Shown: positions 16,896-51,612 of the stretch, in pieces | Layout of the letters: every line of letters starts with the position of its first letter | Position numbering within the stretch: position 1 is the first letter of the stretch | Virus record (IMG/VR): IMGVR_UViG_3300031997_000006 | Span: 1-64,000 of that record | Origin: a virus | Strand: one strand, 5' to 3' | Length of the DNA stretch: 64,000 nucleotides | Position numbers and translations under genes: made by a program | Notes under the pieces: model-generated | Database searches by the model: none | The model's input: only the letters and a program-made list of their open reading frames with translations | What the model was told of the DNA's origin: nothing

Positions 16896-17999
16896 ATGAC
16901 AATGGGATTTTTAAAAGACTACAGGCAAACTATAAAAAAAATGGAGGGTATATCAACTGATGCATCACCTCCAAGATATTGGTTCTCTACAGGTAATCAT
17001 GTACTTAATGGAATTATAGGTATAAGTTTTGATGATGGTATTCCACAAGGAAGAATTACCGCAATATGTGGATTTTCAGGAGCAGGTAAAAGTTTTATTT
17101 GTGGTAATATTTTAAAAGCAGCTCAAGCGGAAGGTGCGTTTGTGTTAGTTATTGATACAGAGAATGCATTAGATGAACCATATTTAACTGGAATTGGTGT
17201 TAATGTTGATGAAGATCAGTTTGCATACGCATCACCAACTACAATTCCACAAGCAGTAAAAGTGATTTCAGCATTTATGAAGGGATATAAAAAAGATTAT
17301 GGATTTAACGCTGATGCACCAAAAATAATTATATGTGTTGATAGTCTTGATATGTTGATGACACAATCTGAATATGAACATTATTTAAAAGGCGAAACAG
17401 CTGGAGACCAAGGTCAACAAATAAAACAAATTAAAGCATTTTTACGAGCAGTTGTTCAAGACATAAAAGGAACTAATGTTTCTGCTATTGTAACGAAACA
17501 AGTTTATAGAGGTCAGGGAATGTTTGCAGACCCTGCTATCGTTACAGAAGCAATGAAATATTCTTGTTCTCAAATTTTAATGGCTACAAAATTAAGATTA
17601 AAAGATGGTGATAATAAACAATTTGGTATAAGAATGAAAGTTGATGTACCTAAAACTCGATTTTGTAAACCATTTCAATCAGTTACAATTGATGTTCCAT
17701 ATGATACAGGAATGGATCCATATAGTGGATTATTTAATGCTGCTGTAAGTTTAGGAGTTGTTACAGGAAAGGGCTGGTATGAAGTAACCGGTACTGATAT
17801 TAGAGTACATGGTGAAGATAAATTAACTCCACATTTTCCAACAATACTTGAAAAATGCAAAGCAATTGAATCAAGATTTATTGAAGTAAAAGTCGATAAT
17901 GATGATATTGATATTGAAGAAATTGTAACTGCAAAAAGTAAACGTGTAAAAAAAGGTGAAGATCTCTTAAATACTCAGGATGATACGACAGAAGATTGA
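16896..17999 (+). CDS. uvsX: UvsX recombinase (RecA family)
   Basis: A 367-residue ATP-dependent strand-exchange protein; T4 UvsX has 391. Walker A GFSGAGKS is at 59-66, Walker B IIICVDSLD at 144-152, and the catalytic Glu region IDTENALDE at 86-94. Its start is set by AAGGAG at 16881-16886, 9 nt from ATG 16896. The C-terminal tail is acidic (DNDDIDIEE...), as in T4 UvsX. It lies between gp32 and uvsY/uvsW, the partners it needs to load on gp32-covered DNA. Unlike uvsW and gp44 it carries no intein. Confidence 0.95.
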   Translation: MTMGFLKDYRQTIKKMEGISTDASPPRYWFSTGNHVLNGIIGISFDDGIPQGRITAICGFSGAGKSFICGNILKAAQAEGAFVLVIDTENALDEPYLTGIGVNVDEDQFAYASPTTIPQAVKVISAFMKGYKKDYGFNADAPKIIICVDSLDMLMTQSEYEHYLKGETAGDQGQQIKQIKAFLRAVVQDIKGTNVSAIVTKQVYRGQGMFADPAIVTEAMKYSCSQILMATKLRLKDGDNKQFGIRMKVDVPKTRFCKPFQSVTIDVPYDTGMDPYSGLFNAAVSLGVVTGKGWYEVTGTDIRVHGEDKLTPHFPTILEKCKAIESRFIEVKVDNDDIDIEEIVTAKSKRVKKGEDLLNTQDDTTED

Positions 18000-18014
18000 T
18001 ATATAGGTAAGAAC

Positions 18015-18395
18015 ATGCAAAATATAACTATAAAAATACAAGCTCTCTTTAATCAACGAATGAAAGATTATGAAAATATAACTGCTGATATAATTGAGTG
18101 TTTACAATTTGCAGTTGACGGAATTAAAGAATATTTTTTAACTGTTGGTGTACTTGTTCGAATAGATGATGTCATGATTGTTTCAGGAATTTTTGTGTTT
18201 GCTACAGTGGTTGAAAATACATTAGTTGAAACACCACAAGCGTTTAATGTTGGTGTTCCAACTAATGTATTATTAACTCAATCAAATATAAAAGTCTGTG
18301 AATTTTTAACTGATGAAGCTGCGAAATCAACAGCTCAACAAGAACTTAACCGTACTTATACACATTCTCCAGTATTAAAAAAACGTTTACATTAA
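18015..18395 (+). CDS. Conserved-context hypothetical protein between uvsX and uvsY
   Basis: 126 residues, 15 nt after the uvsX stop and 1 nt before uvsY, so it belongs to the same operon. It is mixed alpha/beta with a hydrophobic central part (about 40-75) and no recognised motif. The C-terminus is basic (KKRLH). No family was recognised; a recombination or replication accessory role is suggested only by position. Confidence 0.55.
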   Translation: MQNITIKIQALFNQRMKDYENITADIIECLQFAVDGIKEYFLTVGVLVRIDDVMIVSGIFVFATVVENTLVETPQAFNVGVPTNVLLTQSNIKVCEFLTDEAAKSTAQQELNRTYTHSPVLKKRLH

Positions 18396-18396
18396 T

Positions 18397-18858
18397 ATGA
18401 ATATAACATTAGATTTAATTATTAAAGATATAGCTAATGTGGATAGTGTATTGCAATATTATAGGGACGAGTTAGTGGATTTTAATACTCATCTACAAAT
18501 ACAATATAAACGAATTGATACAGCTGTAATTGAACAAGCCGGTTGGTATAGTTTTTATGATACTAAACGAGCAGAATTAAAAATAATTTATGAATATATG
18601 GAACTAAAATTAGCCACAATACATAGTATAAAGTGGCAAAAATTTACAGAGAAACACGATCGAGCCTTAACTCAAAAAGATAAAGAAGTATATATTAAAC
18701 ATGATGTTGATTATATAAATATGTCAATTCTTGTGTTACATACGAAAGAAGTGTATGAACAATATATGAGTATAGTTGATAGTTTTAAAATGCGAGGATA
18801 TAGTTTAAATAACTTAACCAAATTAAAAACAACAAATCAAGAAGATTGGGTTATATAA
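18397..18858 (+). CDS. uvsY: UvsY-like recombination mediator
   Basis: 153 residues against 137 in T4. UvsY helps UvsX displace gp32 from ssDNA. The protein is almost wholly helical. It has the family-like pattern of an aromatic/Lys-rich middle (YxxxKxAEL ... KW), a conserved Asp-rich helix (VDYINMSILVLH) and a C-terminal RGYSLNNLTKLK resembling the T4 'KSRGFAIKHIQDMR' end. Position between uvsX and uvsW matches T4. Its stop overlaps the uvsW start in TAATG, implying coupled translation. Confidence 0.75.
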   Translation: MNITLDLIIKDIANVDSVLQYYRDELVDFNTHLQIQYKRIDTAVIEQAGWYSFYDTKRAELKIIYEYMELKLATIHSIKWQKFTEKHDRALTQKDKEVYIKHDVDYINMSILVLHTKEVYEQYMSIVDSFKMRGYSLNNLTKLKTTNQEDWVI

Positions 18859-20840
18859 TGAATGATGTCATAAGTATACCAAAATCTGTTAATATTACAT
18901 TATTAGATGAAGTACATTGTATAATTACAGGACTCTTTCCAATTGATAAAGATTATTTACACGACAAATATAATTTACTTACTAAAGATTATCTTTGGAA
19001 TGCATATTTTAAATTAGGTGTTTGGGATGGAAAAAAAGAGTTTTTTACTAAGAAAGGAAAAACATATATCTTTTTGTTGAATAATATTATCCCAATTGTT
19101 GTCAATTTTGGTTATAAAGTAAATTTAATTGATAAACGAACAGCAGTTACTCATACACCTGATGTTGTGGTTGATGCTAATTATTTTAATCATATTATTA
19201 ATCTAAAAACAAAAACACCTTACAAATTGGCAGATCATCAAATCGAAGCTGCAAATATGGCTATAAATTTAGGTAGTGGGATTTTATTAGCTGGGACAGG
19301 TTTTGGAAAATCTCAACCATTAACATCAAAAGTACTTACTCCTAATGGATGGGTACAAATGGGTGAGATTAAAATTGATGATTTAGTAATGACTCCTAAA
19401 AATACTATAACGAAAGTAATAGGAGTATATCCACAAGGTAATACAGATGTTTATAAAATAACTTGTAATGATGGAGCTACTGCTAGTTGTTGTGCAAATC
19501 ATTTGTGGATTGTTCATAATGATAAAACTGTTGCTAAAGGTAGTAAACCGTTTACAATATGTGATACTAAAGAATTATTTACACGTTCAAATATGAGTGT
19601 ACCTCATAGACCTCAAATTCCATTAATTCCAGTTGCAATTGATTTTAATAAAAAAGAATATACAGTATCTCCGTACGTTATGGGAGCTATAATACCGTTT
19701 TTATCTAAAGAATGTCAAGAATTAGTGATATTGGAGGGAATACCTAATAATATATTATCAAGATTACAATATAATCTTAGTTCTTATGGTATAGATGTTC
19801 ATTGGATGCGTGATAACTTATATCGTTTATGTTCTAATAATGAAAATGTTGAAGATATTAATAATATAATTGATTTACAACTTGATTATAATAATATTAA
19901 AATACCTGATGAATACATATACAGTACTTCAGCAGTACGTGCACTGTTTCTGAAAGGATTGTGTGATACATGTGGTAATATAACAAATATAGGTAGTATA
20001 AGTGTTATTAAGATTAAAGAATCATTAGCATTTCAAATTCAAGAAATGGTATGGTTACAAGGTGGAGCTTGTAAAGTTAGTTCATTTGCAATTACTATAC
20101 ATCATAAAGATCCCTGTGCGTTTTTTAGTAATATGAAATATGTTACAAATTATCTTAAGCATAGTAGTGATGCACACGGAAATAATTTGATGCATAGTAG
20201 GCGAGTTGATTATGTACAATTAGTTTCAAACGAACCAACACAATGTATATTAGTTGAAGACTCAGATCATTTATACATAACAGATAATTGTTTAATAACT
20301 CATAATACTATATTAAACGGTGTATTAATTGACATATATGGAAAACTTGGATGTAAAACAATTACAGTAGTCCCATCAAGTACATTAGTTACTCAAACTT
20401 TAAAACAGTTTGATATATTACAATTAGATGTTGGGCAATATGATGGTACAATAAAAGACCTTAACCATCAACATATTGTATCTACTTGGCAAACATTACA
20501 AAATAATCCAAATTTGATAAGATTGTTTCAAGTAATTATATCAGATGAGTGTGTACATCCTAGTACTAAAATTAAAACAGATATTGGTGAAGTATATATA
20601 AAAGATTTAAGTGTTGGTGATTTAGTATTAACATATAATGAATATACAAAATGTCAAGAATATAAACCAGTTAAAAAAATATACAAAAATTTACCAAAAA
20701 TACAAATTGAAAAAATATTTAAAATTACATTAGATAATAATAAAGAGTTAATTATTACAGGAAATCATAAAGTATTAACAGATAGTGGTTGGAAGCGGGT
20801 TGATGCATTAACATTAACAGATCAAGTACTATGTTTTTAG
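18858..20840 (+). CDS. uvsW: UvsW helicase N-terminal gene with one complete intein and a split-intein N-half
   Basis: The start is ATG 18858, overlapping the uvsY stop (TAATG); the upstream TTG 18846 is rejected. 660 codons. Residues 1-152: UvsW N-terminal domain (LGVWDGKKEFF, like T4 YGNWDGRIRLL) up to Walker A GTGFGKS. 153-483: intein a. 484-564: helicase motifs up to VIISDE. 565-660: an intein N-half starting CVHPSTKIKT and ending in a stop. The remainder of the helicase is a separate gene at 21924. UvsW is the branched-DNA and R-loop helicase that switches T4 from origin- to recombination-dependent replication. The full extein would be about 497 residues; T4 has 503. Confidence 0.9.
   Translation: MNDVISIPKSVNITLLDEVHCIITGLFPIDKDYLHDKYNLLTKDYLWNAYFKLGVWDGKKEFFTKKGKTYIFLLNNIIPIVVNFGYKVNLIDKRTAVTHTPDVVVDANYFNHIINLKTKTPYKLADHQIEAANMAINLGSGILLAGTGFGKSQPLTSKVLTPNGWVQMGEIKIDDLVMTPKNTITKVIGVYPQGNTDVYKITCNDGATASCCANHLWIVHNDKTVAKGSKPFTICDTKELFTRSNMSVPHRPQIPLIPVAIDFNKKEYTVSPYVMGAIIPFLSKECQELVILEGIPNNILSRLQYNLSSYGIDVHWMRDNLYRLCSNNENVEDINNIIDLQLDYNNIKIPDEYIYSTSAVRALFLKGLCDTCGNITNIGSISVIKIKESLAFQIQEMVWLQGGACKVSSFAITIHHKDPCAFFSNMKYVTNYLKHSSDAHGNNLMHSRRVDYVQLVSNEPTQCILVEDSDHLYITDNCLITHNTILNGVLIDIYGKLGCKTITVVPSSTLVTQTLKQFDILQLDVGQYDGTIKDLNHQHIVSTWQTLQNNPNLIRLFQVIISDECVHPSTKIKTDIGEVYIKDLSVGDLVLTYNEYTKCQEYKPVKKIYKNLPKIQIEKIFKITLDNNKELIITGNHKVLTDSGWKRVDALTLTDQVLCF
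19314..20306 (+). mobile_element. Intein a in UvsW Walker A (class 3 type, degenerate LAGLIDADG)
   Basis: A 331-residue intein between GFGKS and Thr. The first residue is Gln, not Cys/Ser. The W-C-T residues that define class 3 inteins are all visible: Trp in block B (NHLW), Cys at block F position 4 (TQCILVED), Thr before the terminal His-Asn (LITHN), with Thr as +1. The middle has two LAGLIDADG-like motifs (SPYVMGAIIPF and FLKGLCDTCG), but the first lacks its acidic residue, so the endonuclease is probably dead. Boundaries follow from conserved helicase motifs on both sides. Confidence 0.8.
20550..20840 (+). mobile_element. Split intein, N-half (UvsW motif II)
   Basis: Ninety-six residues fused after the DExH motif Asp-Glu. 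It starts with Cys1 (CVHPSTKIKTDIG) and includes block A/B features: IKDLSVGD and the ITGNHKVLTD histidine motif. It ends ALTLTDQVLCF at TAG 20838-20840. The complementary C-half begins the gene at 21924. The downstream endonuclease ATG (20831) overlaps the last codons. Confidence 0.85.
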
Positions 20841-21946
20841 AACATTTTAATAAAATCAAGATTAAATCCTATCATAATCTTAATAGATATATAAAGTTAA
20901 TTCAATCAAGAGATTCTAATAGAAAGCTAATATATTTTGAAAAACATCACATACTACCAAGGTCATTATTTAAGGAGTTTGAAAATTCTGATTTTAATAT
21001 AATTAAACTTACCCCTAGAGAACATTTTATCGCACATTTATTACTTGCGCGTACGATTGGTGGAAAAATGTGGTTAGCTGTAAGGTGTATGGCTAACGCT
21101 AAACCAGCACAACTACATAGAGGTGAATATAAAGTTAATAGTAAAATATATGAAAGATTGAGAATTGAGAGTTCAAAAATAATTGCAACACTTGCTAAAA
21201 CTCGTAGAGCAAATGAAACATTGGAACAAAAAGTTAACAGGATTAAAAAATGGCAGGAAAATTTTTATAATAAAACATTGGAAGAAAAAACATTAATATG
21301 GAAAAGAAATTTACAAACTAGAATAATAAACGAAACAGTAACATATTTTATATGTAGTTGCATTTCTTGTAGAAGCACAACAAAAAATATTAATAGACAC
21401 AAGTGCAAGATACCAAAAGTTAAAATACTTAAAATACCTAAAATAAAAATTATCCCAATAAAACAAATACTAAACTATACTTGCCCTATATGCGATAAAA
21501 CAAATTTTAGAAATGAAACATTTTATAATATTCATATTATAAAATGTCAAATACGATATAATAACAAAATAGAGAAAGAACAAGCTCGAAAAAATCGTTT
21601 ATGTACTATATGCTTTAAACAATTTAATTCAAAACTTTGGTTTGATAAACATATAGAAATTGGAACTTGTCATTTACCTATTGAAGAACAGAAAAGAATA
21701 TCAAGAAATAAAGCGAGACAAACTATGAATAGTAAATCTATTGAAGAAAAAGAAATTTATGGACAATTAATATCTCAAAAACGTAAAATATATTTACAAT
21801 CACTTTCAGAAGAAGAATTGATATTATATCACAACAAATTACGAAAATCAGCACTTGCGTACTATGATAGCACTGCTTATAATCCAGCGATTAGATCTCA
21901 ACAAATTAAAGAAGGTTTAAAAAATGACAAACATTCTAAAAATTGA
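20831..21946 (+). CDS. HNH homing endonuclease inside the fractured uvsW gene
   Basis: A 371-residue HNH endonuclease. The motif KHHILPRSLF ... NIIKLTPREHFIAHLLL (about 37-75) supplies the His-His, Asn and His of the HNH fold. The C-terminal half has two zinc-finger-like units (CPICDKTNF...HIIKC at about 217-240, and CTICFKQFN...TC at about 256-280), probably for DNA recognition. It overlaps the N-gene by 10 nt and the C-gene by 23 nt, in different frames, so all three are likely translationally coupled. It is very Lys/Ile/Asn-rich. The likely target is an uninterrupted uvsW allele at motif II. Confidence 0.85.
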   Translation: MFLEHFNKIKIKSYHNLNRYIKLIQSRDSNRKLIYFEKHHILPRSLFKEFENSDFNIIKLTPREHFIAHLLLARTIGGKMWLAVRCMANAKPAQLHRGEYKVNSKIYERLRIESSKIIATLAKTRRANETLEQKVNRIKKWQENFYNKTLEEKTLIWKRNLQTRIINETVTYFICSCISCRSTTKNINRHKCKIPKVKILKIPKIKIIPIKQILNYTCPICDKTNFRNETFYNIHIIKCQIRYNNKIEKEQARKNRLCTICFKQFNSKLWFDKHIEIGTCHLPIEEQKRISRNKARQTMNSKSIEEKEIYGQLISQKRKIYLQSLSEEELILYHNKLRKSALAYYDSTAYNPAIRSQQIKEGLKNDKHSKN

Positions 21947-22826
21947 AGAAATAGATTATATTGGTGATGTATATAATTTACATGTTGAAAATAATCATAA
22001 TTATATTGCAAATGGAGTAGTAGTATCAAATTGCCACGGAAGTCGTGCGAAAATACTCCAATCATTACTATCAGAGTACGGAAAGAATATTGCGCACAGA
22101 TTTGGGTTAACCGGTACATTACCAGATCACCCAGTTGATTTAATGTTAGTTAAAGTTGTATTAGGTGATGTAATATTTACATCATATGCAAAAGATTTAA
22201 TTGAAGCAGGTTGGTTAGCAACTCCTAATATTAGTATAGTGCAATTAAATGATGTAGCTTATTTACAAAAAAGTGGCGTAAATGAAATTGAACATTTATT
22301 ATATGAGGAAGAATTACATTTTTTAAAGAGTTGTATCACCCGACAACAATGGATTGCAAATTATATAATTGAAAAAAGTAAATCAAGTAAAATAGGTAAT
22401 ACATTGATATTAGTTAATAACATCGTGTACGGTAAACAATTAACAAAATTAATTCCAAATGCGGTATTTTTACATGGAAAAGATAAAGATGCTATAAGAC
22501 AAAAGGTATACGATTTATTTGAAGTTCAAGATGATTTAATTGTAATTTGTACAAAACAAATCGCAGGTGTAGGTTTATCGATAGACCGTATTTTTATTTT
22601 GATATATATAGATGGGGGGAAGTCATTTATAAATACAATTCAAACAATTGGTCGTGGTCTTAGAAAAGGTCGTGATAAAGATTCAGTAGACATTATCGAC
22701 ATATGTGGTAATATGGTTATATCAAATAACCATTTAAAACAAAGGATAAAGTATTATAAAGGTGCGAATTATTTTTATAAAAAACATACAATTGAATATT
22801 ATAATGGAGATATAAATTTGTGTTAA
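21924..22826 (+). CDS. uvsW: UvsW helicase C-terminal gene with split-intein C-half
   Basis: 300 codons. The first 36 residues (21924-22031) are an intein C-half with block F (DVYNLHVENNHNYIANG) and block G ending VVSN, followed by +1 Cys. The extein continues CHGSRAK (completing motif II as DE-CHG), motif III-like RFGLTGTLPDH, and motifs V/VI (IAGVGLSIDR; QTIGRGLRKGRDK) of an SF2 helicase. Trans-splicing with the gene at 18858 would restore UvsW. The penultimate residue is Ser instead of the usual His, a known variation. Its stop overlaps the next gene. Confidence 0.9.
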   Translation: MTNILKIEEIDYIGDVYNLHVENNHNYIANGVVVSNCHGSRAKILQSLLSEYGKNIAHRFGLTGTLPDHPVDLMLVKVVLGDVIFTSYAKDLIEAGWLATPNISIVQLNDVAYLQKSGVNEIEHLLYEEELHFLKSCITRQQWIANYIIEKSKSSKIGNTLILVNNIVYGKQLTKLIPNAVFLHGKDKDAIRQKVYDLFEVQDDLIVICTKQIAGVGLSIDRIFILIYIDGGKSFINTIQTIGRGLRKGRDKDSVDIIDICGNMVISNNHLKQRIKYYKGANYFYKKHTIEYYNGDINLC

Positions 22827-44974: not shown

Positions 44975-46168
44975 ATGATTGAATTAACGGAATACCACAA
45001 AACATTATACGCAGATTTGTTACATTTAACAGACACCAATGAAGCGTTCTATTTCCGTGATAATATTAAAGACGATGTAACCTATCGTATTTTTACGTAT
45101 AGATTAGCATCATATTCTGATTTTTTATTGCCAGGTGCACTAGAATGTCGCGGAATTATGTTTGAATTGGCGAACGATCACCCTGTTCGATTAGCTTCAT
45201 TACCAATGGCCAAATTTTGGAATTGGAAAGAGAATCCCGCTACAACGAATCTCGACTTTCATAATTTTAAACAAATTATGCATAAATTGGACGGGAGCTT
45301 AATTTCGACTTTCCAACATAAAGGTATAGTTTATTTTAAATCTAAAACTGCATTATATTCTGATCATGCTAAAGCAGCTACTGATTATGCAATTAGTGTT
45401 GTACCTGATTATAGCAACAATATACAAACATCATTATATGATGAATTTAAAGTAATTGAAACTGCTGGACATACTGTTAATTGTGAGTTTACATCTCCAC
45501 ATTACCCATTTAGAATTGTTGTTGGTTATCAAGAACCAAAATTAACAATTCTAAATGTTCGTCATCGTGGAACAGGTGTTTATGTTACACTAGATGAAGT
45601 ACAAAATGTTTTAAATTTATTTTATAAAAATAAAAACGATCGAATGATTACTGCTCATTGGATCGAAACTGTTAATGTTGCTAATGATGAAATTGATGAT
45701 TTTATTAATTCTATTGATGCACAAACTGGAATTGAAGGTTATGTTATTCAATTACACGATGGAATGTTAGTTAAAATCAAAACTGATTGGTATCGTGCAT
45801 TACATCATGTTAAAGATAGTATTAATTGTATGCGTAGATTATTTGAAGCTGTTCTTGAAGAAACAACTGATGATTTAAGATCAATGTTATATGATGATCC
45901 AGTTTCATTAGAACGCATTAATGATATGGAAATTAAAGTTGTTCATATTTATAATAGCACTATTAAAAATGTTGAATCTTTCTATGAAGATAATGTTAAC
46001 CTAGATCGAAAAGATTATGCTATAAAGGGACAGCAAATACTTTCACATCTTGAGTTTGGTTTAGCAATGAATAAATATAGTGGAAAAATAATTGATTATA
46101 AAGGTATAATTAAAAAGAATTATAAATCATTTGGTATTATAGAAGATGAACCTGAACTAACTGAATAA
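44975..46168 (+). CDS. rnlA: RNA ligase 1 (T4 RnlA family)
   Basis: 397 residues (T4 Rnl1 374). ATP-dependent RNA ligase that repairs host-nuclease-cut tRNA. Motif I is KLDGS with adenylated Lys104. The upstream signature ECRGIMFEL and FWNWKENPATT match T4 Rnl1, and IEGYVIQLHDGMLVKIKTDWY fits motifs IV and V (EGYV ... K-x-K). C-terminal tRNA-specificity domain follows. No polynucleotide kinase was recognised in the window. AAGGA precedes the ATG. Confidence 0.9.
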   Translation: MIELTEYHKTLYADLLHLTDTNEAFYFRDNIKDDVTYRIFTYRLASYSDFLLPGALECRGIMFELANDHPVRLASLPMAKFWNWKENPATTNLDFHNFKQIMHKLDGSLISTFQHKGIVYFKSKTALYSDHAKAATDYAISVVPDYSNNIQTSLYDEFKVIETAGHTVNCEFTSPHYPFRIVVGYQEPKLTILNVRHRGTGVYVTLDEVQNVLNLFYKNKNDRMITAHWIETVNVANDEIDDFINSIDAQTGIEGYVIQLHDGMLVKIKTDWYRALHHVKDSINCMRRLFEAVLEETTDDLRSMLYDDPVSLERINDMEIKVVHIYNSTIKNVESFYEDNVNLDRKDYAIKGQQILSHLEFGLAMNKYSGKIIDYKGIIKKNYKSFGIIEDEPELTE

Positions 46169-47795: not shown

Positions 47796-47833
47796 ACTGT
47801 TGTTCCTGATTCGCCGTGCTCATGCACAACAGT
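47796..47833 (-). ncRNA. Candidate omegaRNA/right-end hairpin of TnpB element
   Basis: ACTGTTGT (47796-47803) pairs perfectly with ACAACAGT (47826-47833), with a GTGC/GCAC inner stem at the tnpB stop. GC content is well above the flanks. In IS200/IS605 elements the tnpB 3' end overlaps the right-end hairpin and the guide RNA scaffold, which matches this location. The exact end and guide cannot be set without relatives. Confidence 0.45.
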
Positions 47834-48926
47834 CAAGTTCTTCGACAGTTCGACTTATGTGATTTCTTTTCTCAGAGGCAATGCCTTTGCCCAACAATAG
47901 AGTATTAATCGCAGCATTTATGTCACGATCATGCGTAGCTCCACAACTACAACTCCACTGTCTTACTGCAAGCCCATCAAAACCACTCGGACCAGTCAGG
48001 TCTCCGCAATTTGAACAGGTCTTGGTGGAATTTCTATTACTTACCAGAACTAATTCTCCAAATCCATCAATTCTTGACGCTAATTTGTTTTTTAGTAGTT
48101 CTCGTATTTTGCCAAGTGCTAAATTGGCGTACTGCTTTCCATATTTTTGAATTAATCCCTTAAAATTATCATCTGACCAGAATATTTTTACATATATCGC
48201 AGCCAAATAAGTAGTTAATTTATGGTGGTGATCAGTTCTTTGATTTGTGATCTTTCTTTGTAGATATTTTAATTTTTTCGAGTTCTTTGATTTCCTCTGC
48301 AAATTACCAATTTTCTTTTCTGCATCTTGGTAGAATTTTGGAAAATCAATTTGTACTCCATCACTCAATGTCAAACTTGTTTTTAAACCAGGATCAATTC
48401 CTGCTTCTTTTCCATCTGTTATTTCTATTTTTTCTCTTGTTTGGTCATAACAACAACTCACATACCAACAATCGAATTTCTTAATCAATGTACATTTTTT
48501 TAATTTGCCCGTGAATTTACCTGATTCACTGATTTTTAAAGTTGTCTTTAATCCAGGGATTTTTAATCTGCCTGATTTGTCAAACTTGATATCACCTGCA
48601 AAATAAAAACTTTTCTTTTGTCTACAATTTTTATAATGTAGTCTGTGAATTCCGTGTTTCTTAAAACTTGTTAACACCGCTTGAATACAACAATTAATCA
48701 ATGCACTTGGAATTCCACATTTCTTGCTATGTCCAATTATCTTTTTTGATAATATACTTCTGAGTTGTATATCAGACATGAACATATACGCAAACCAGTT
48801 CTCGTCAAGTTCGTACTTGATTTGATTAATTACCCAATTTTCAATTCCAATAGCACTCCACAAGAAGTCATTGAGGACTTGTTCTTGTTTCTTAGTTGGA
48901 TAAATTTTGTGTGAAATATTAATCAT
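47820..48926 (-). CDS. tnpB: TnpB-like RNA-guided nuclease, IS200/IS605 family
   Basis: The start MINISHKIYP (48926) is preferred to 49001; length 368 residues. RuvC-I GIDPGLKT (Asp178); RuvC-II region IFWSDDNFKGL at 248-258; zinc finger Cys304-x-x-Cys307 ... Cys326-x-Cys328; RuvC-III THDRDINAA (Asp333/335). The canonical RuvC-II Glu is not at its usual place (Ser251-Asp252), so catalysis is either lost or uses a relocated acid, as reported for some TnpB groups. No tnpA partner nearby. Higher GC than neighbours indicates transfer. Confidence 0.85.
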   Translation of the reverse strand: MINISHKIYPTKKQEQVLNDFLWSAIGIENWVINQIKYELDENWFAYMFMSDIQLRSILSKKIIGHSKKCGIPSALINCCIQAVLTSFKKHGIHRLHYKNCRQKKSFYFAGDIKFDKSGRLKIPGLKTTLKISESGKFTGKLKKCTLIKKFDCWYVSCCYDQTREKIEITDGKEAGIDPGLKTSLTLSDGVQIDFPKFYQDAEKKIGNLQRKSKNSKKLKYLQRKITNQRTDHHHKLTTYLAAIYVKIFWSDDNFKGLIQKYGKQYANLALGKIRELLKNKLASRIDGFGELVLVSNRNSTKTCSNCGDLTGPSGFDGLAVRQWSCSCGATHDRDINAAINTLLLGKGIASEKRNHISRTVEELDCCA

Positions 48927-49052
48927 AAATATATTATGGCTGCTCCTATAATACGTATCCACTGCTTTTTCAACTGATGAAAATGAGATGTGTAGAACCA
49001 ATTACAGCTATATAAAGTTGATTTATATTATATAATATGGTATAATATACCT

Positions 49053-49303: not shown

Positions 49304-49891
49304 ATGAATAGGTCTAACAAATTAATAGTGCGAGATATTGATGATATGATATCAACAAATTTAATAGTTCGACATAAAGGAGGGTCTCATGCTTACGGTA
49401 CAAATATTGAAACATCAGATATTGATATTCGTGGTATATTCTGTGCAGATGCAGTAAATATTTTAACTCCTTTTTATAAAGTTGAACATAAAGTTGAACA
49501 GAAAGTGGTATTAGATAAAGATATTGATATTACAATGTATGAGTTGTGTAGATTTGTAGAATTATACACTGCAGGAAATCCGAATATACTCGAGACACTC
49601 TGGATTGATCAAGTTGATATATTAGAAAGTACTACAGAGTACGGTATTTTAAGGGCTGTACGCCAAAATTTATTAAGTTCCAAAGTAGCTTTTACATTTA
49701 CAGGCTATGCCTCTGCCCAAGCATCAAAATTAAAATCTCGTAGTAAAAATGTAAGTTATGAAGAAGATTTACAGATGTTGATTAATATATTACAACAAGG
49801 ACTTCAAGATAAATTAATTGATTTAGAATTTATAGAACGTGAATGTGGAGATATAGTATTACAATATTTATTAAATAAAAAATTAATATAA
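49304..49891 (+). CDS. Nucleotidyltransferase, N-terminal half of a fractured gene
   Basis: 195 residues with the polymerase-beta type motif GGSHAYGT...SDIDIRGIF (26-46), giving Gly-Ser and Asp-x-Asp metal ligands. Then ILTPFYKVEHK, LDKDIDITMYELCRFVELYTAGNPNILETLW, and FTGYASAQ, as in the phage/bacterial YcgL-type predicted nucleotidyltransferase. Family members continue to an HLVRLLRMG...RPDA-x-ELL half, which here is a separate gene (50908). AGGAG precedes ATG 49304. The last 40 residues, after SRSKNV, may be sequence gained at the break. Confidence 0.8.
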   Translation: MNRSNKLIVRDIDDMISTNLIVRHKGGSHAYGTNIETSDIDIRGIFCADAVNILTPFYKVEHKVEQKVVLDKDIDITMYELCRFVELYTAGNPNILETLWIDQVDILESTTEYGILRAVRQNLLSSKVAFTFTGYASAQASKLKSRSKNVSYEEDLQMLINILQQGLQDKLIDLEFIERECGDIVLQYLLNKKLI

Positions 49892-49910
49892 GAATATTAA
49901 AGGTATTTGC

Positions 49911-50942
49911 TTGGATGAATTAATTATAAAAATTAAACAACATTTAACACGAAAAGATGGTAGATTAAATAATCATAGAATAACAGGAAATATAAGTACT
50001 GAAAATGCACAATTAATATCAGAGTTGGTAGAATTGACAAATTTTTTAGACGATTCTGCATCTATACCACAAAGATGGTGGCATATTAAAAGTAATATAT
50101 TATATATACCTAGTTGTGAAAAGTGTGGAGCAAATACTAAATTTAAAGATAATAGGTATGACAGATATTGTTCCCATAATTGTGCAGTTACATCAATTGA
50201 AAATTCTATAAGAACAAGTAATGCATTTAAAGGTAAACTTGTTCCGCCTGAACGAGTATTGCGATCAAAAGAAACAAGAATAAAAAATGGATATTATAAA
50301 GATCGTGAATCAACAATTAAAAAATTTAGTCAATCAAAACAAGGTGCGAATAATCCATGTTATGGTAAACATCCTTGGAATTGGGGATTAAGAGGAGCAG
50401 AATGTCCTAATTATGGAACTAAAAAAGCAGAACATACTAAACGCTATGGAATAGATAATAACTTATTTGGAAAACCTGCACCGAAAAATGCAGGGCGAGG
50501 AGTGCATGGTAGATTTAATAATATACATTTTAGAAGTAGTTTAGAATTATGTTATTTAATATACTGGTATCGTAATAATATTGAAGTAGTATCTGCTGAA
50601 ACTAAAACATTTCGTGTACAATATTATGATCAATTTAATAATATTAGATCATATGTACCTGATTATTATATTCCTATTACAAATGAATTATATGAAATAA
50701 AACCAAAGTTTTTTCAAACTAATACACAAGTACAAGAAAAATTTAAAACACTTATTAAATACCATACAGATAAAATATGTAAGTTTGGAAGTGGATATGA
50801 ATTAATAGATACTATACAAGATATTATGTATAATATTTCACAATACATTGAAAATAATATATTAATAATATCAGAATCTCAACTTGAAAAACTAGAGAAA
50901 AATCGTAATGAAATCATTAGAACAATTATACATTCATTATAA
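49911..50942 (+). CDS. Homing endonuclease (NUMOD3 plus PD-(D/E)XK/Vsr-like) splitting the nucleotidyltransferase gene
   Basis: 343 residues from TTG 49911, with AAAGG 7 nt upstream. A zinc knuckle CEKCGAN...YCSHNC (67-88), NUMOD3 repeats (QGANNPCYGKHPWNWG; GAECPNYGTKK; NNLFGKPAPK), then a nuclease core: FRSSLE...VQYYDQFNNIRSYVPDYYIP...YEIKPK, with Glu, Asp and Glu-x-Lys of a PD-(D/E)XK/Vsr-like fold. It lies 20 nt after the N-half and overlaps the C-half by 35 nt. No intron fits in these gaps. Confidence 0.82.
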   Translation: MDELIIKIKQHLTRKDGRLNNHRITGNISTENAQLISELVELTNFLDDSASIPQRWWHIKSNILYIPSCEKCGANTKFKDNRYDRYCSHNCAVTSIENSIRTSNAFKGKLVPPERVLRSKETRIKNGYYKDRESTIKKFSQSKQGANNPCYGKHPWNWGLRGAECPNYGTKKAEHTKRYGIDNNLFGKPAPKNAGRGVHGRFNNIHFRSSLELCYLIYWYRNNIEVVSAETKTFRVQYYDQFNNIRSYVPDYYIPITNELYEIKPKFFQTNTQVQEKFKTLIKYHTDKICKFGSGYELIDTIQDIMYNISQYIENNILIISESQLEKLEKNRNEIIRTIIHSL

Positions 50943-51612
50943 CAAACGAAAAAATTACCGTAGTACTACAAAATTATGCAAACCAAAAGAGATAGATTAT
51001 GTATCTCTAGTTCATAATTTTACAGATGCTAAAATTTTTAGTATTGATATTAAAGACTATCAACATGGATACAGATTAATACCGTATGGTGATGCTTTAT
51101 TTGGTTTGTATAAAGTTGATGGTTATGATACATTTGATGATCGTGGCTCATTAAATACAACTTTTGATCCTGAAACTGGATTTTTTACTGAAGATGATCA
51201 ACGTAGATTACCAATGTTTATTCTTAAGTTTGCTAAACAAGAATATAATCGTGTTCACACTGATTGGAAAAATTATTGGGAGTGGAAAATTAACAGAAAT
51301 GTAATTCGTGGTGCAATGGAAGAAACATTTGGTTATGACGGAAAGAACGCACTCCATTTAGTTCGCCTTATGAAAATGGGAGCTGAGATCTTAGAAACTG
51401 GTATTGTTAATGTTAAACGACCAGATGCTGCTGAATTATTAGCAATTCGGAATGGTTCGTGGTCTTATGAAGAGTTATTAGAATATTCTGAATATATGGA
51501 TAATAAAATTCGTAATGAATTGTATCATACAACATCGTTGCCTAAAGTTCCAAATATCAAATTGGCTGCAAAAACGATTTTAGAAGTTCAAGAATCAATG
51601 TGGCATAAATGA
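50908..51612 (+). CDS. Nucleotidyltransferase, C-terminal half of a fractured gene
   Basis: 234 residues, ATG 50908 inside the end of the endonuclease. Carries the family's second half: YWEWKINRNVIRGAMEETFGYDGKNALHLVRLMKMGAEILETGIVNVKRPDAAELLAIRNGSWSYEELLE (about 117-190). It has no nucleotidyltransferase motif of its own. The two halves presumably associate noncovalently, as no intein is visible. The substrate of this family is not established. Confidence 0.75.
   Translation: MKSLEQLYIHYNKRKNYRSTTKLCKPKEIDYVSLVHNFTDAKIFSIDIKDYQHGYRLIPYGDALFGLYKVDGYDTFDDRGSLNTTFDPETGFFTEDDQRRLPMFILKFAKQEYNRVHTDWKNYWEWKINRNVIRGAMEETFGYDGKNALHLVRLMKMGAEILETGIVNVKRPDAAELLAIRNGSWSYEELLEYSEYMDNKIRNELYHTTSLPKVPNIKLAAKTILEVQESMWHK

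What the first reader, a model, noticed from the sequence alone, without database searches (positions are those of the whole stretch)
49304..51612. Nucleotidyltransferase gene split by a NUMOD3/PD-(D/E)XK homing endonuclease, no intein or intron visible
Seen: the GGSHAYGT...SDID half and the HLVRLMKMG...RPDAAELL half of one family are separate genes, with the endonuclease 20 nt after the first and overlapping the second by 35 nt. There is no room for a group I intron and no intein blocks. The layout mirrors uvsW, suggesting these endonucleases break genes and leave two-chain proteins. This may be a step before or after intein loss.
Basis: partly seen in the sequence, partly recalled or inferred. 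Interest (0 to 1): 0.72.

Follow-up and report, generated by a model that had tools for sequence, protein, structure and literature searches.

The report
Phage enzyme gene split by endonuclease
A DNA-cutting mobile gene has broken a phage RNA-repair enzyme gene into two separately translated halves; the same kind of break recurs in at least six other phages, each time with a similar extra tail on the first half, and one of them stays broken after the cutter gene has decayed.

Summary
A is 49304-49891 (N half of an RlaP/nrdC.11-type nucleotidyltransferase), E is 49911-50942 (NUMOD3 + PD-(D/E)XK, TnsA-like), B is 50908-51612 (C half). About 90 distinct homologues are single ORFs. I found six further genes split at the same place. 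Four carry relatives of E with the same A-E-B layout. One has a GIY-YIG endonuclease instead. One keeps only a ~100-nt GIY-YIG remnant yet is still split. No intein, and no Rfam intron, was found at any break. The break lies just after a long helix, at a near-invariant KGHNKWINNPQ motif. Every A half ends in an extra ~40-aa tail that intact homologues lack, and the tails of the two endonuclease classes are related. Split genes do not form one clade, so the cassette has moved between lineages or been lost repeatedly. Best reading: a mobile endonuclease cassette that splits its host gene and supplies new protein ends, leaving a probable two-chain enzyme (assembly inferred). The layout is known from Aeh1 nrdA/mobE. 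The recurrence, the tail shared by two endonuclease classes, and persistence after endonuclease decay are new as far as the searches reached.

The parts
49304..49750 (+). A half, core: Pol-beta-type nucleotidyltransferase domain of the RlaP/phrog_388 family plus the long helix that ends at the break
   Evidence: PF10127 E=1.1e-15, phrog_388 7e-35; covers the start of the intact-family profile
49751..49891 (+). A-tail: ~46-aa extension absent from intact homologues, present in all seven split genes
   Evidence: Tail model hits only split genes in 43 records; PD-type and GIY-type tails are mutual best non-self hits among 28,039 ORF segments; profile comparison E=9e-8
49911..50942 (+). E: putative homing endonuclease, C4-type zinc-finger-like motif, NUMOD3, PD-(D/E)XK (PDYYI...EIKP) catalytic domain
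   Evidence: NUMOD3 PF07460; TnsA-like N domain in relative L163, E=0.0015; TnsA among the top Foldseek hits, prob 0.80-0.85 but E 0.14-0.38; full-length close relatives only at the same gene
50908..50991 (+). B-head: ~28-aa extension of the C half; its first 35 nt overlap the 3' end of E in another frame
   Evidence: SLEQLL..Y..(K)xCxPxQ-like head shared by four PD-type loci; overlap with the endonuclease gene in all five
50992..51612 (+). B half, core: C-terminal part of the nucleotidyltransferase (NYWxWK.NRN, GYD.KxAxHLVRL, RPDAAELL)
   Evidence: phrog_388 positions 178-335, 1.4e-24; profile positions 145-349 of 350, E=3.5e-84

Best explanation
This is a genes-in-pieces locus made by a free-standing homing endonuclease. 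The endonuclease gene lies in a cassette that interrupts an RlaP-type (RNA-repair) nucleotidyltransferase gene at its conserved KGHNKWINNPQ-coding stretch. The cassette supplies its own ends: an A-tail with a stop codon for the first half, and inside the 3' end of the endonuclease gene a start codon and short head for the second half. The host gene is therefore read as two proteins. Shown: the split, the new ends, recurrence at one site, no recognisable splicing element, the scatter of carriers on the gene tree, and one locus with a decayed endonuclease where both halves remain open. Inferred: that E cuts intact alleles, that the cassette spreads by homing, that the two chains assemble into a working enzyme, and that the tails help them do so.
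For: A and B match complementary parts of one family profile with little but the linker motif missing, and about 90 distinct homologues are intact. Same A-E-B anatomy in L161, L162/L164, L163, L216; GIY-YIG version in L068. L135 keeps A, B and tail but only a GIY-YIG remnant (12/23 identity to L068's endonuclease start); the second half there follows AAGGA before ATG 4650, and a second assembly is 99.9% identical. One clade of the five PD-type carriers is rejected on the whole core (p-AU 0.0086) and on A alone. L161 A is 77% identical to intact L071, and L135 A is 75% identical to an intact gene up to the break and unrelated after it. No Rfam intron in any split locus. In the intact fold (pLDDT 94.7) the break falls between helix 121-144 and the next element, in the loop 145-153. 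Known precedent with reported function: Aeh1 nrdA/mobE (PMC2988022), whose layout I checked.
Against: No cleavage, homing, expression or assembly data. H139 and W142 of the linker motif (H139 invariant in 46 intact homologues) are lost in all five PD-type carriers, so their assembled enzyme may be altered or inactive. Four of the five PD-type carriers sit on long branches, so constraint may be relaxed. On B alone one clade is not rejected (p-AU 0.055), so part of the scatter could be placement error or co-conversion. The codon-position test for constraint on the A-tail was inconclusive.
Confidence: 0.75

Rival explanations
1. The break is spliced at the RNA level: E lies in an unrecognised group I or group II intron, and A-tail and B-head are read-through of intron sequence.
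For: Homing endonucleases often sit in phage introns; exons commonly read into introns until a stop (general knowledge). No tool result here favours it.
Against: No Rfam intron in the window stretch at E<=5 or in eight other loci at E<=0.5. Little room 3' of E. Joining the flanks would not restore KGHNKWINNPQ, which is altered in PD-type carriers and truncated in GIY-type ones. A-tails are related at protein level between two endonuclease classes.
Confidence: 0.06
2. A (degenerate) split intein or an intein-loss intermediate: the halves were or are joined by protein trans-splicing.
For: The same contig's uvsW has a split intein around an endonuclease, and relatives of E occur with split inteins in uvsW (L166) and uvsX (L222). 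Inteins do occur in this gene family.
Against: No Hint/intein match in A, E or B; the A-tail is ~46 aa and looks helical, the B-head ~28 aa without a terminal HN motif. None of seven split genes shows intein residue at this site. Inteins of this family lie at GYD/KHAMH instead.
Confidence: 0.05
3. The split gene is a dying pseudogene: the selfish cassette destroyed the enzyme, and the fragments persist only because the insertion is recent or repeatedly re-invaded.
For: Loss of near-invariant H139/W142 in PD-type carriers; long branches.
Against: A and B are open in all seven divergent carriers, with most other invariant residues kept; E relatives are only 40-47% identical, so the arrangement is old; the split persists in L135 after endonuclease decay with a good ribosome-binding site for B; no second intact copy in the seven records, some of which are fragments.
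Confidence: 0.14
4. The tail was ancestral in the family, and endonucleases merely inserted repeatedly into alleles that already had it.
For: Jumbo-phage homologues (CBB, 121Q, RaK2) have an in-frame ~60-aa insert at the same linker.
Against: That insert is not detectably related to the tails (profile scores within the shuffled range); the tail model finds no intact gene; the nearest intact relatives of the carriers have the short linker.
Confidence: 0.1

Closest known systems
Aeromonas phage Aeh1 nrdA-A / mobE / nrdA-B (genes-in-pieces ribonucleotide reductase; Friedrich et al. 2007, as described in PMC2988022 and PMC3653736)
   Same: Host gene split into two ORFs by a free-standing endonuclease with no intron or intein; short gap, endonuclease, then a second half overlapping the endonuclease (14 nt). 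The halves also appear to carry extra ends (that they are extra rests on my recollection of normal NrdA).
   Different: HNH endonuclease, different host gene, reported activity; tails unrelated. Recurrence with two endonuclease classes and persistence after endonuclease decay are seen here.
T4 gene 60/39 with mobA, and gene 43A/43B with seg43 in Aeromonas phage 25 (PMC2988022)
   Same: Endonuclease-associated splitting of a functionally critical gene into two chains that must assemble.
   Different: Other genes and endonucleases; no shared tail mentioned in the review passages I read.
Fractured genes with split inteins and Vsr-like endonucleases (Dassa et al. 2009; recalled, paper not held)
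   Same: Gene halves flanking a free-standing endonuclease in phages; relatives of E here do occur in such loci (L166, L222).
   Different: No split intein at this locus, so no protein trans-splicing; the endonuclease is NUMOD3 + TnsA-like PD-(D/E)XK. The window's uvsW is the true example of this class.
T4 mobD beside nrdC.11 (PMC3468402)
   Same: A homing endonuclease associated with this nucleotidyltransferase family.
   Different: In T4 the endonuclease neighbours the gene rather than splitting it. That nrdC.11 belongs to this family rests on naming (KLEP7 annotation).

Membership tests
Genes-in-pieces created by a free-standing homing endonuclease | One conserved gene encoded as two ORFs flanking an endonuclease gene, intact in relatives | tested here: met
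Genes-in-pieces created by a free-standing homing endonuclease | No intron or intein at the break | tested here: met
   Rfam; Pfam
Genes-in-pieces created by a free-standing homing endonuclease | Endonuclease cleaves the uninterrupted allele and is mobile | not testable with these tools
   Only indirect: scattered carriers on the gene tree
Genes-in-pieces created by a free-standing homing endonuclease | The two chains assemble into an active enzyme | not testable with these tools
   Indirect: both halves open in seven carriers, including one with decayed endonuclease
RlaP / nrdC.11-type nucleotidyltransferase | Family profile and G-S-x-x-Y-G / D-x-D catalytic motif | tested here: met
   PF10127 and phrog_388; invariant G25, S26, D37, D39 of the intact family kept in A
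RlaP / nrdC.11-type nucleotidyltransferase | Near-invariant linker motif KGHNKWINNPQ | tested here: not met
   KSRSKNVSYEED in the window; H139/W142 lost in all five PD-type carriers. Membership by profile stands; this feature is the one the cassette has altered.
Fractured gene with split intein | Intein N and C fragments at the break | tested here: not met
   No Hint match in A, E or B, in contrast to uvsW
NUMOD3 + PD-(D/E)XK homing endonuclease | NUMOD3 repeat and PD...ExK motif | tested here: met
   NUMOD3 at 20.5 bits against cut-off 20.4, stronger in relatives; P250/D251 and E262/K264 invariant in four

The most novel reading that the evidence does not exclude
The A-tail (with the B-head) is a portable, non-splicing counterpart of a split intein: a small protein module carried by the mobile cassette that docks the two halves of the broken host enzyme, making the insertion tolerable. 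Unrelated endonucleases (PD-(D/E)XK and GIY-YIG) have been exchanged within it, and it stays behind as part of a permanent two-chain enzyme when the endonuclease dies.
Probability: 0.3. Interest if true: 0.85.

Novelty: new variant of a known kind. Interest (0 to 1): 0.6.

Why it matters
How endonuclease-split enzymes reassemble has been named an open question (PMC2988022). Here is one gene broken at one place in at least seven phages by two endonuclease classes, with a conserved tail and a natural endonuclease-dead descendant. That is a comparative series in which the role of the tail, the homing of the cassette and the fixation of a two-chain enzyme can each be tested.

Tried and rejected
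Group I or II intron: no Rfam match. Intein or split intein at this site: none. Homology of the tails with the jumbo-phage in-frame insert: looked plausible by eye, but profile comparison stayed within the shuffled range. Homology with Aeh1 NrdA tails: none. Tail in Pfam or PHROGs: no match above noise; in isolate phages: nothing significant. Codon-position conservation of the A-tail: no better than codon-shuffled controls, so not used. RNA hairpin over the endonuclease start, as reported for Aeh1 mobE: none (z=0.7). Scan of 84,980 prokaryote genomes for the endonuclease: nothing. An early hhalign run used a wrongly cut L068 tail and was replaced.

Full report
1. The locus. The window is part of a 73.6-kb uncultivated viral record. 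A matches RlaP (PF10127) and the first half of phrog_388; B matches the remainder of phrog_388; E carries NUMOD3. RlaP enzymes are predicted to restore nucleotides on RNA ends together with RNA ligases (PMC7824862), and a T4 Rnl1-type RNA ligase lies at 44975-46168.

2. Intact relatives. Phage homologues such as Vibrio phage 2.275.O, KLEP7, CBB and 121Q encode A+B as one ORF. Scans of viral contigs gave about 90 distinct intact sequences. Nearly all share a short linker KRIKGHNKWINNPQPxxPPxQxDFVSLV; a jumbo-phage clade has an in-frame ~60-aa insert at the same point.

3. Other split genes. Searching with E gave L161 (also L089), L162/L164 (identical sequence in two metagenomes) and L163; a search with the split A halves added L216. 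All have A with a C-terminal tail, a homologous endonuclease, and B whose start overlaps the 3' end of the endonuclease gene. L068 has the same arrangement with a GIY-YIG/NUMOD3 endonuclease. L135 has A and B but between them only ~100 nt that begin MFYVYGLIDSFTNKVFYVGKG, 12/23 identical to the start of the L068 endonuclease, followed by a frame break. The same structure occurs in a second assembly at 99.9% identity. The endonuclease there is dead, the gene is still split, and its second half has AAGGA before ATG.

4. The break. Against a profile of 46 intact sequences, the A halves end at about positions 138-146 and the B halves begin at about 136-159; the window A match at that step ran on through stop codons into E and was not used for the boundary. 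In the model of intact L009 (mean pLDDT 94.7) this is the end of helix 121-144 and the loop 145-153. In the GIY-type genes KGHNKWIT is kept and NPQ is lost; in the five PD-type genes the motif itself has changed (for example SSKKHVNY), including H139, invariant in 46 intact sequences.

5. The new ends. Every split A half continues for ~40 residues that no intact homologue has. A model of the five PD-type tails and one of the two GIY-type tails find each other as best non-self matches, in register, among 28,039 ORF segments (individual E-values are weak, 0.02-0.13), and profile comparison gives E 9e-8, score 34 against at most 11.6 in 40 column shuffles. The jumbo insert does not pass this test. 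In 43 whole viral records the tail model gives strong matches only in the split genes. The B-heads share SLEQLL-like residues in four PD-type loci but are not detectably related between classes.

6. Movement. On trees built without the linker, carriers are scattered among intact genes. One clade of the five PD-type carriers is rejected for the whole core (p-AU 0.0086) and for A alone, not for B alone (p 0.055). L161 A is 77% identical to intact L071, whereas its B is at most 49% identical to any intact gene. Either horizontal movement or repeated loss could give this; both make the element unstable at a fixed site. Four of the five PD-type carriers sit on long branches, so relaxed or altered selection is likely.

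7. What it is not. No Rfam intron was found in the window stretch (E<=5) or in the other split loci (E<=0.5). No intein motifs lie at this site. The comparison with uvsW fails: uvsW at 18846-22826 has one complete intein and a second intein split around an HNH endonuclease. Inteins do enter this nucleotidyltransferase family, at GYD/KHAMH (L105, L135, L195), and in L138 an endonuclease splits the gene at that second site.

8. Known context. The layout is that of Aeh1 nrdA-A/mobE/nrdA-B, where the split enzyme is reported to be fully active (PMC2988022). Relatives of E occur in three settings: with split inteins (L166 uvsW, L222 uvsX), free-standing beside other genes (L223, L225, L232), and splitting this gene without an intein. 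I therefore class the finding as a new variant of a known kind. The new elements, as far as the searches reached, are the recurrence at one site, the tail shared across two endonuclease classes, and persistence of the split after endonuclease decay. Assembly, activity and homing remain inferred.

Noticed in passing
window 18846-22826: uvsW carries one complete intein at its Walker A motif and a second intein split around an HNH endonuclease gene (20831-21946).
   Followed up: partly
window 47820-49001 (-): TnpB-like OrfB_IS605 gene directly upstream of the split nucleotidyltransferase, on the other strand.
   Followed up: no
window 16896-22826 and 49304-51612: In relatives (L105, L163) the nucleotidyltransferase sits beside uvsX or uvsW; in the window it lies about 26 kb away from the uvsX-uvsW cluster.
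   Followed up: no
L105 3995-6103, L135 4626-6449, L195, L138 2136-4184: Second invasion site in the same gene family at GYD/KHAMH: inteins in three loci and, in L138, a PD-(D/E)XK-like endonuclease splitting the gene without an intein.
   Followed up: partly
L222 3650-5773, L166 3593-6375: uvsX and uvsW genes broken by split inteins around endonucleases of the same NUMOD3/TnsA-like family as E (in L222 a truncated one).
   Followed up: partly
L004 1380-2630, L005 1389-2621 and other jumbo-phage loci: In-frame ~60-aa insert at the same linker in intact jumbo-phage homologues, not detectably related to the split-gene tails.
   Followed up: yes
L120 3977-4699: A 240-aa homologue that lacks the middle ~120 residues but keeps both ends in one frame.
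   Followed up: no
L232 3010-3924 (Vibrio phage pv27): A distant relative of E sits after tRNA nucleotidyltransferase and hydrolase genes, where Vibrio phage 496E54-1 has the RlaP gene; no RlaP match was found in the fetched stretch.
   Followed up: partly
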